Assembly: GCA_024695865.1 (NCBI GenBank)
Contig: JAILHI010000035.1
Span: 1 to 64,000 of the forward strand
DNA length: 64,000 nt
From: Candidatus Gastranaerophilales bacterium
GTDB lineage: Bacteria; Cyanobacteriota; Vampirovibrionia; Gastranaerophilales; Gastranaerophilaceae
Direction of reading: 5' to 3'
Position numbers and translations under genes: made by a program. The notes beneath the pieces were generated by a model that worked only from the letters and a program-made list of their open reading frames with translations, had not been told where the DNA came from and made no database searches. The stretch's first letter is position 1. Each line of letters starts with the position of its first letter. Of this stretch, positions 37,491 through 38,036 are shown piece by piece.

Positions 37491-37601
37491 GAGGTACTGT
37501 TCACACGAAAAGTTTCCTTTTCGGCTCCGTAATTTCTGATTAATAATCAGGCGCAGAGGAGCAAGACTGCTAATCTGTGAGTTTTGTGCTGTTAATACCT
37601 C
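37491..37601 (+). ncRNA. Structured RNA element 1
   Basis: Closing stem GAGGTA/TACCTC. Inside are three hairpins: CGAAAAG-tttc-CTTTTCG (37506-37523), CTGAT-taata-ATCAG (37536-37550) and CGCAGA/TCTGTG with inner AGCA/TGCT (37552-37579). The 3' strand TGCTGTTAATACCTC matches the other elements. A G-U pair in the third hairpin favours transcription of the plus strand. Confidence 0.65.
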
Positions 37602-37664
37602 ATCTTCAAAATGTTAATGGTCGATAGTCAAGAACACTTTAAAGAGTAAATATTAAATTTTAAC

Positions 37665-37780
37665 GAGGTGCCTTCCCTTCGCTAACTTTAAGACGTTCAT
37701 AATCTCGTGGTTATGATGATAAAGTCTGCGATTTGTCCTATATTTAGACTGGTTATTAGAAGTATTGCTGTTTGCACCTC
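37665..37780 (+). ncRNA. Structured RNA element 2
   Basis: Closing stem GAGGTGC/GCACCTC, with 3' strand TGCTGTTTGCACCTC. The internal CATAATC-tcgt-GGTTATG hairpin (37698-37715) contains a U-G pair only possible on the plus strand; an outer AGAC/GTCT helix surrounds it. A further hairpin TGATATTTCG/CGAAAATATCA follows at 37783-37837. Confidence 0.65.
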
Positions 37781-37857
37781 TTTGATATTTCGTGCGTAAC
37801 TTTCGGTTTTTTAAACACAGGTTATCGAAAATATCATTGATTATTTTGTTTTTGAAC

Positions 37858-37981
37858 AAGGTACACTCAGGTAAAGTCCTTATCCTGAGATAGACAACAC
37901 CTGCCCTGATTACCGATTACTAAAATCGGAGTGGCTACAGTAATTGCTGGTTGGCGCTTGGTAGTTTGCTGTATGTACCTT
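37858..37981 (+). ncRNA. Structured RNA element 3
   Basis: Closing stem AAGGTAC/GTACCTT, with 3' strand TGCTGTATGTACCTT. Inner hairpins are CTCAGG/CCTGAG (37866-37889) and CCGATT-actaa-AATCGG (37913-37929). Confidence 0.65.
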
Positions 37982-37983
37982 TC

Positions 37984-38036
37984 AAAGTACTTTATCAAGA
38001 ACCACAATCTTGTTTTGGTTTTGCTGTATGTACTTT
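37984..38036 (+). ncRNA. Structured RNA element 4 (short)
   Basis: Closing stem AAAGTAC/GTACTTT and 3' strand TGCTGTATGTACTTT. A single inner stem AGAACCA/TGGTTTT includes a G-U pair. The T-rich tail could act as terminator for plus-strand transcripts. Confidence 0.65.

What the first reader, a model, noticed from the sequence alone, without database searches (positions are those of the whole stretch)
37491..38036. Four tandem RNA elements with covarying closing stems
The closing stems are GAGGTA/TACCTC, GAGGTGC/GCACCTC, AAGGTAC/GTACCTT and AAAGTAC/GTACTTT: at least three positions change in compensating pairs. All share the 3' strand TGCTGT-n2-RYACYTY, and internal hairpins differ. G-U pairs in four helices are possible only on the plus strand, so the array is probably transcribed away from the DUF2828 gene and towards the WYL pair. 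A duplicated RNA family beside a Ro60-like gene recalls Y RNAs but does not match a known one.
Basis: seen in the sequence. Interest (0 to 1): 0.9.

Follow-up and report, generated by a model that had tools for sequence, protein, structure and literature searches.

The report
tRNA-mimic RNA array beside Ro60 gene
Next to a bacterial relative of the human Ro60 autoantigen lies a row of small RNAs, shared with many phages, several of which copy the anticodon arm of transfer RNAs, possibly as decoys or docking sites during attacks on tRNA.

Summary
The four elements are real (37491-38037) and belong to a widespread RNA family that I found described nowhere. Signature on the DUF2828 strand: a 7-bp closing stem, exactly 2 nt, ACAGCA(A), a variable head, the 3' stem strand. 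In 80 deduplicated phage/viral/plasmid loci around DUF2828 genes, 7-bp stems at this spacing number 154 on the DUF2828 strand and 1 on the other. Stems covary: 124 of 257 unselected sites find their own complement, against 5.9 when swapped. The DUF2828 protein has the Ro60 fold (pLDDT 92; Z 23.8 to Ro60). The heads are tRNA mimics: 34 of 185 elements carry a 5-bp/7-nt anticodon arm with a genuine anticodon loop (antisense 1, shuffles 0.8), 21 a T-arm; several are circularly permuted tRNAs resembling YrlA. Window E4 mimics the tRNA-His anticodon arm. Best reading: a Ro60/Y-RNA-like array in a WYL-controlled tRNA-repair operon. Decoy or docking function is inferred.

The parts
38051..38096 (-). 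conserved promoter block TTCGCA-nn-TTTTTTT ... hexamer TATTCT exactly 40 nt after the first T; probable WYL-regulated promoter reading into the array
   Evidence: same block, same 40-nt spacing to TATTCT/TATAAT, 7 instances in 6 of 8 bacterial loci examined; a stricter pattern occurs once in the own genome and only in this locus in two relatives
37984..38036 (-). element E4 (53 nt): 7-bp closing stem AAAGTAC/GTACTTT, AT, ACAGCA, head
37996..38012 (-). anticodon arm mimic in E4: CAAGA-TTGTGGT-TCTTG, tRNA-His (GUG) loop
   Evidence: relatives L012/L007 carry a Tyr loop (CTGTAAA) at the same place
37858..37981 (-). element E3 (124 nt): closing stem AAGGTAC/GTACCTT
   Evidence: homologues in L012 and L007
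37665..37780 (-). element E2 (116 nt): closing stem GAGGTGC/GCACCTC
   Evidence: homologue in L007
37491..37601 (-). element E1 (111 nt): closing stem GAGGTA/TACCTC plus U-G on the minus strand; 88% mean column identity with L012 and L007 copies
37536..37550 (-). hairpin in E1 (CTGA-TTATTAA-TCAG) at the place where L012 and L007 have a tRNA-Lys(UUU)-like arm TCTGA-TTTTTAA-TCAGA
35973..37433 (-). DUF2828/DUF7788 protein, Ro60 fold (TROVE-like ring plus vWA)
   Evidence: Pfam; AlphaFold; Foldseek and VIA
35893..35966 (-). tRNA-His (GUG) gene directly downstream
35807..35887 (-). degenerate tRNA-like gene, no readable anticodon
   Evidence: (37.8 bits)
34792..35586 (-). RlaP, RNA-repair nucleotidyltransferase
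   Evidence: PF10127, E 1.5e-54
38205..39476 (+). WYL-domain regulator 1, divergent
   Evidence: PF13280
39460..40437 (+). second protein of the WYL pair; no Pfam hit itself at E 0.001, the L008 homologue matches WCX

Best explanation
The array is a set of small noncoding RNAs, partners of the Ro60-fold DUF2828 protein, transcribed on the minus strand from a WYL-controlled promoter and continuing into DUF2828, reserve tRNA genes and RNA-repair enzymes. The closing stem with ACAGCA at 2 nt is the constant handle, which DUF2828 most likely binds; the interchangeable head presents a tRNA anticodon arm, a tRNA-like domain or a permuted tRNA. When a phage or competitor attacks tRNAs by anticodon cleavage, the operon is induced: the mimic RNPs occupy or misdirect anticodon-targeting enzymes (decoy, or bait), while RtcB, RlaP and spare tRNAs restore the tRNA pool. 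Shown here: RNA family, strand (from sequence), covariation, tRNA mimicry, predicted Ro60 fold, operon context. Inferred: DUF2828 binding, WYL control, decoy function.
For: Family and spacing: 154 sense vs 1 antisense 7-bp stems at gap 2; gap 3 gives 15/2, gaps 4-8 give 5-8 sense. 72 of 80 loci have at least one 6-bp element, 53 of 80 within 1 kb upstream of DUF2828. Hexamer control: ACAGCA 185 hits, mean over its 60 letter permutations 20.5; the two runners-up (91, 85) are one-base shifts of the same motif. Own-stem pairing 124 of 257 vs swapped mean 5.9, max 14 in 500. A covariance model finds elements in phage records not used to build it. tRNA mimicry: anticodon arms with genuine loops 34 of 185 (28 with Watson-Crick stems only), antisense 1 (0), shuffles 0.82 (0.29), loop set taken only from tRNA calls that do not overlap elements; T-arms 21 of 185, antisense 1, shuffles 0.22. 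The YrlA covariance model hits permuted heads on the sense strand in L126, L009, L075, L085 (37.7-41.4 bits, below the 69-bit cut-off). Ro60 fold: Z 23.8 over 419 residues, rmsd 3.9. Context: RlaP, RtcB, Thg1, AAA_33 kinase, tRNA clusters. Promoter block. Phages with DUF2828 carry it among tRNA genes.
Against: Most heads are not recognisable tRNA mimics: 123 of 185 fell into 'other', and in the window only E4 passes the exact-loop test. The hint that a mimic matches a tRNA encoded nearby is weak: 8 of 34 vs 5.3 shuffled, reached in 9.9% of shuffles, once tRNA calls overlapping elements were removed (the uncorrected 13 of 34 was inflated by them). 8 of 80 loci have no element by the 6-bp scan. 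No transcript, binding or cleavage data exist here. G010 has four elements on a 5.1-kb contig without a DUF2828 gene, which the contig end may hide, and no DUF2828 match elsewhere in that genome.
Confidence: 0.5

Rival explanations
1. Tether or gate, as described for Deinococcus Y RNA: the RNA links the Ro60-like ring to an effector (RtcB, RlaP, a nuclease or a tRNA-modifying enzyme), and the tRNA-like head is the docking surface rather than a decoy.
For: Ro60 fold; permuted YrlA-like heads; RtcB/RlaP in the operon. Passages of PMC7790460 describe Rsr-Y RNA-PNPase tethering and also raise a competitive-inhibitor idea for the YrlA tRNA-like domain.
Against: A tether needs one or two heads; many loci hold several different heads with different anticodons, and close relatives have His or Tyr at E4.
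Confidence: 0.27
2. Processing or stability hairpins: the stems only separate and protect pieces of a long tRNA-rich transcript (RNase cleavage sites), with tRNA-like heads as decayed tRNA genes.
For: Elements lie among tRNA genes in phages; some heads are tRNA pieces.
Against: A generic processing hairpin does not need ACAGCA at exactly 2 nt or a preferred position relative to DUF2828; 54-65-nt elements carry intact 5-bp/7-nt anticodon arms without the rest of a tRNA, not what random decay gives.
Confidence: 0.1
3. Regulatory leader: the array is a 5' leader that lets DUF2828 sense free tRNA-like RNA and control its own expression.
For: 87 of the 183 sense 6-bp elements in 80 loci start within 500 nt upstream of DUF2828.
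Against: Many elements lie 1-4 kb away or downstream of the gene (histogram).
Confidence: 0.08
4. One reading: plus-strand RNAs transcribed towards WYL, there antisense to tRNA pieces, possibly guides.
For: MFE of all four elements slightly lower on the plus strand.
Against: Fixed orientation with DUF2828, sense-only anticodon arms, minus-strand G-U pairs, promoter block.
Confidence: 0.03
5. DNA element (recombination or integration sites made of inverted repeats).
For: Tandem inverted repeats with variable middles; L012 lies beside transposase and integrase genes.
Against: G-U pairs kept, tRNA arms in one strand only, covariation between the two strands of the same element and not between elements.
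Confidence: 0.02

Closest known systems
Bacterial Y RNAs, YrlA (Rfam RF02553)
   Same: Beside a Ro60-fold gene in RNA-repair context; closing stem plus tRNA-like head; some heads are circularly permuted tRNAs (T-arm, closed acceptor stem, D-arm) which the YrlA model recognises.
   Different: All hits are below the family cut-off; ACAGCA does not appear in the printed YrlA consensus; several elements per locus; many mimics are bare anticodon arms of different isoacceptors; protein partner is DUF2828, not TROVE by Pfam.
rsr-yrlBA-rtcBA RNA-repair operon (Salmonella)
   Same: Ro60-like gene, tRNA-mimic RNAs and RtcB together (passages of PMC7790460).
   Different: Probable regulator is a WYL pair instead of RtcR; RlaP, Thg1 and spare tRNA genes instead of RtcA; RNAs upstream of the Ro60-like gene.
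Phage tRNA-repair and tRNA-replacement systems (T4 Pnk/Rnl1, phage tRNA arrays)
   Same: Phages with DUF2828 carry tRNA clusters and some RNA-repair genes (PMC7824862 passages).
   Different: An RNA that imitates the anticodon arm is not among the counter-measures in the passages read.
Ro60 of Thermus phage phiLo (PDB 9l5y, 9kop)
   Same: Phage-encoded Ro60 fold, VIA Z 14.5-15.5 to the window protein.
   Different: 15-17% identity; no RNA partner looked at here.

Membership tests
Y RNA (functional class) | encoded next to a Ro60 orthologue | tested here: met
   DUF2828 model matches Ro60 over most of its length, Z 23.8, 11% identity; a structural relative, since a sequence profile found no Ro60 in the PDB
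Y RNA (functional class) | ends of the RNA pair into a stem that carries the Ro60 site | tested here: inconclusive
   closing stem met; whether ACAGCA or the stem is the protein site cannot be seen from sequence
Y RNA (functional class) | stable RNA physically bound by Ro60 | not testable with these tools
   needs RNA-seq and CLIP/EMSA
YrlA, RF02553 | score at or above the curated cut-off (69 bits) | tested here: not met
   best 41.4 bits (L009), 39.8 (L126, L075); nothing in the window at gathering threshold; best in own genome 16.7 bits, on another contig
YrlA, RF02553 | permuted tRNA-like head | tested here: met
   met in relatives by model hit: L126, L009, L075, L085; by reading also L094 3576, L124 1496, L129 6365; not seen in the four window elements
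ACAGCA element as a general Ro60 feature | also present at TROVE-type Ro60 genes | tested here: not met
   12 TROVE loci, 39,031 bases: ACAGCA with 6-bp stem 1, mean of permutations 1.05; 12 of 30 genomes with TROVE matches gave loci, with only about 1.5 kb of flank each
tRNA genes | complete cloverleaf with acceptor stem | tested here: not met
   ARAGORN and Rfam find no tRNA in the window array

The most novel reading that the evidence does not exclude
A phage-and-bacterial 'anticodon decoy RNP': Ro60-fold DUF2828 proteins bind arrays of RNAs with one constant handle and exchangeable heads that display the anticodon arms of chosen tRNAs (Lys, Asn, Ser, Pro, Ile, Tyr, His and others), diverting anticodon nucleases of whichever side attacks; head identity changes between close relatives (His in the window, Tyr in L012/L007) as an arms race would predict.
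Probability: 0.42. Interest if true: 0.93.

Novelty: new variant of a known kind. Interest (0 to 1): 0.86.

Why it matters
It would give the large DUF2828 family (682 of 50,697 phage records) an RNA partner and a reason to exist, widen bacterial Y RNAs from one tRNA-like module to a repertoire of anticodon mimics, and make the old question of what Ro60/Y RNA particles do testable in simple phage-host pairs: the head predicts which tRNA, and so which nuclease, is involved.

Tried and rejected
Integron-like or transposon DNA sites: rejected because mimicry and orientation are strand-specific. Plus-strand antisense-tRNA guides, my first reading: dropped when the same pieces proved to be sense tRNA arms on the DUF2828 strand. 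Match between mimic anticodon and neighbouring tRNA genes: looked strong, fell to 8 of 34 vs 5.3 after excluding tRNA calls that overlap elements; not claimed. The first anticodon-arm test used a loop set that could contain loops of the elements themselves; repeated with a clean set. U33A loops: 2 of 185, not above shuffles (0.79). The first AlphaFold run with 8 sequences was poor (pLDDT 71.6) and was replaced by a 54-sequence run. Sequence search for solved relatives of DUF2828 gave nothing convincing. A second R1 hit in the own genome (C55, E 0.03) lies inside a reading frame and is taken as chance. The family-wide R1 search (2 of 60 genomes) used stricter filters and missed G012, which has an array, so it undercounts. 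The TTCGCA-nn-TTTTTTT pattern also occurs twice on the sense strand in the 92 phage/viral/plasmid loci (none antisense); not followed. Paper searches on DUF2828 (4 plant papers, listing only), YrlA, Ro60 with WYL, phage or Thermus phage, RtcB/WYL/Thg1, YrlA/Rsr, decoys and Ro-like phage proteins showed in their listings no description of this RNA; papers named in those listings were read only in passages (PMC7790460, PMC7824862, PMC7765460, PMC13148394). Key Y RNA papers (PMC4201824, PMC6047535, PMC10870794, NAR gkw722) are not held, so a description there cannot be excluded. From memory (no call): the 2014 Y RNA study reported Y RNAs near Ro60 in over 250 bacterial and phage species.

Full report
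WHAT IS THERE. The four tandem elements exist at 37491-37601, 37665-37780, 37858-37981 and 37984-38036. They lie between a DUF2828/DUF7788 gene (35973-37433, minus) and a divergent WYL pair (38205-40437, plus). Behind DUF2828 on the same strand come a tRNA-His gene, a degenerate tRNA and RlaP, an RNA-repair nucleotidyltransferase. The one RtcB gene found in the own genome is on another contig. No Rfam family other than tRNA matches the window at gathering threshold.

RELATIVES. The DUF2828 protein is rare in the window's own bacterial family (4 of 191 genomes, own included), but a pattern scan gave six bacterial loci (L007-L012), and it occurs in 682 of 50,697 phage records and 4 of 72,556 plasmid records. 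A scan of viral contigs with the alignment found 293 relatives, of which the best 80 were kept. In all six bacterial loci the stretch upstream of DUF2828 holds an array of the same kind, and so does L013. Loci differ in content: RtcB in L007, L009, L010, L012, RlaP in L007 and L012, Thg1 and a P-loop kinase in L007, clusters of Phe/His/Met or Gln/Met/Phe/His tRNAs after DUF2828 in L012 and L007.

THE SIGNATURE. On the DUF2828 strand the element reads: 7-nt stem strand (commonly AAGRYRC), 2 nt, ACAGCA(A), head, complementary strand. In the 80 loci that remained of 92 after deduplication (720,008 bases), 7-bp stems at a gap of exactly 2 occur 154 times on the DUF2828 strand and once on the other; at gap 1 70/2, at gap 3 15/2, and at gaps 4-8 5 to 8 times on the sense strand (gap-1 hits are probably for the most part the same elements with a longer stem). 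72 of 80 loci have at least one 6-bp element, 53 within 1 kb upstream of DUF2828; 8 loci have none; 8 loci have an antisense one. Letter permutations of ACAGCA give 20.5 on average against 185. All 12 annotated or named phage and plasmid records examined, from Bacillus, Listeria, Mycobacterium, Staphylococcus, Klebsiella, E. coli, Campylobacter, Fusobacterium, Enterococcus, Vibrio, a faecal phage and a Subdoligranulum plasmid, have at least one on the DUF2828 strand (29 of 30 listed hits; one KP2025 hit is on the other strand). These 12 were picked by me from the hit lists for variety of host.

COVARIATION. To avoid choosing sites by pairing I took all 257 [AG]C[AT]GCA sites within 1 kb upstream of DUF2828: 124 find the exact complement of their own 7-mer downstream, against 5.9 on average (maximum 14 of 500) when partners are swapped; 62 different stem sequences are involved; the window contributes exactly four sites, those of its elements. 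On an alignment of 77 short elements all 6 pairs change on both sides, but those rows had been picked by pairing, and I gave the aligner 77 of the 79 rows prepared. A covariance model of them finds elements in 17 of 20 further sources at E up to 0.05, 33 of 33 hits on the DUF2828 strand; two pairs of these are the same sites seen in L006 and L013, and L008, L009, L012 and L013 contributed rows to the model.

tRNA MIMICRY. Among 185 non-redundant 7-bp elements, 34 contain a 5-bp, 7-nt hairpin whose loop is a genuine anticodon loop of tRNAs found elsewhere in the loci; the antisense strand gives 1, dinucleotide shuffles 0.82 on average (maximum 5 of 200). With Watson-Crick stems only: 28, 0 and 0.29. 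Stretches of equal length 600-1800 nt upstream give 10 of 518, true tRNA genes included. Anticodons: UUU 5, UGG 5, GUU 4, UGA 4, UCU, GAU, UGU and GCU 2 each, eight others once. A T-arm is present in 21 of 185 (antisense 1, shuffles 0.22). Some heads are whole tRNA-like bodies; others have the order T-arm, closed acceptor stem, D-arm, that is, a circularly permuted tRNA with the closing stem in place of the anticodon arm. The YrlA model has the same order and finds them below its cut-off in L126, L009, L075 and L085; its L094 hit (3826-3941, 33.6 bits) is at another place than the T-arm element listed. In the window E4 is a His arm (CAAGA-TTGTGGT-TCTTG); L012 and L007 have a Tyr arm there. E1 of L012 and L007 has a Lys(UUU)-like arm, altered in the window to TTATTAA. 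123 of 185 heads were not classified.

STRAND AND PROMOTER. Orientation relative to DUF2828, sense-only tRNA arms and G-U pairs all point to the minus strand. In addition TTCGCA-nn-TTTTTTT with TATTCT or TATAAT exactly 40 nt downstream occurs on the DUF2828 strand in the window, L007, L008, L009, L011 and L012 (twice), the six loci in which WYL homologues were found, and not in L010 (no WYL hit) or L013 (not tested for WYL). A stricter pattern hits once in the own genome, once in G012 and twice in G122, all in this locus. In L009 it precedes rtcB, array and DUF2828. That WYL binds it is inference. The simple promoter scan found no strong site on the minus strand there.

PROTEIN. AlphaFold on 54 sequences: pLDDT 92.4, pTM 0.91. 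The best matches among solved structures are Ro60 proteins (Foldseek ranks 1-12, VIA ranks 1-10), at 10-17% identity; the rows below match the vWA domain. LeBron gp53, a member, is annotated Ro-like and was cytotoxic on overexpression (passages of PMC13148394).

MECHANISM. Shown: a conserved RNA family with a constant handle and tRNA-mimic heads, next to a gene for a predicted Ro60-fold protein in RNA-repair surroundings. Inferred: binding by DUF2828, WYL control, and decoy or docking use against anticodon nucleases. PMC7790460 (passages) reports tethering of Rsr by Y RNA and suggests, untested, competitive inhibition by YrlA; PMC7824862 (passages) describes phage tRNAs, ligases, RlaP, Thg1 and TROVE proteins as counter-measures to tRNA cleavage. 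TROVE-type loci in the phylum show no ACAGCA elements above chance (12 loci), so the handle seems special to DUF2828, with the limit of short flanks.

NOVELTY. Y RNAs as tRNA mimics are known; this array form, its handle and its bare anticodon arms were not found in the searches listed under Tried and rejected, with the main Y RNA papers unavailable. Hence new variant of a known kind.

Noticed in passing
L012 7586: A second copy of the TTCGCA...TATTCT promoter block lies between DUF2828 and the tRNA cluster, as if the spare tRNAs had their own regulated start.
   Followed up: partly
window 35807-35887 (-): Degenerate tRNA-like gene without a readable anticodon beside tRNA-His; could be a decayed tRNA or another mimic.
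   Followed up: no
L007 3938-5139 (-): Thg1 (tRNA-His guanylyltransferase) and a small P-loop kinase sit beside the WYL genes on their strand, divergent from the array.
   Followed up: partly
L013 8690-8900 (-): tRNA-like pieces that look like tRNA-Ile and another tRNA interrupted by the ACAGCA stem element, so that 3' half and 5' half of neighbouring tRNAs alternate with stems (by reading).
   Followed up: partly
L144 (G010:C32, 1-5117): Small contig with four elements interleaved with Leu, Pro, Lys and Glu tRNA genes and endonuclease-like frames; TTGACA...TATAAT-like stretches precede several units; no DUF2828 on the contig.
   Followed up: partly
L012 104-2665: Mu-type transposase, TniB-like ATPase and phage-integrase frames next to the WYL pair, suggesting a mobile island.
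   Followed up: no
L128 3905-4336: Klebsiella phage KP2025 record annotates a 432-nt tRNA-Arg that overlaps the start of DUF2828, probably an annotation artefact.
   Followed up: no
L011 1557-3449; L008 2121-3158: Schlafen group 3 helicase frame and an ATPase frame of the STAND/AAA kind upstream of the WYL pair.
   Followed up: no
L077 2017; L086 5534: Two anticodon-arm hairpins with A instead of U at position 33 (CATTTAA, CAGTTAA); not above shuffles.
   Followed up: partly
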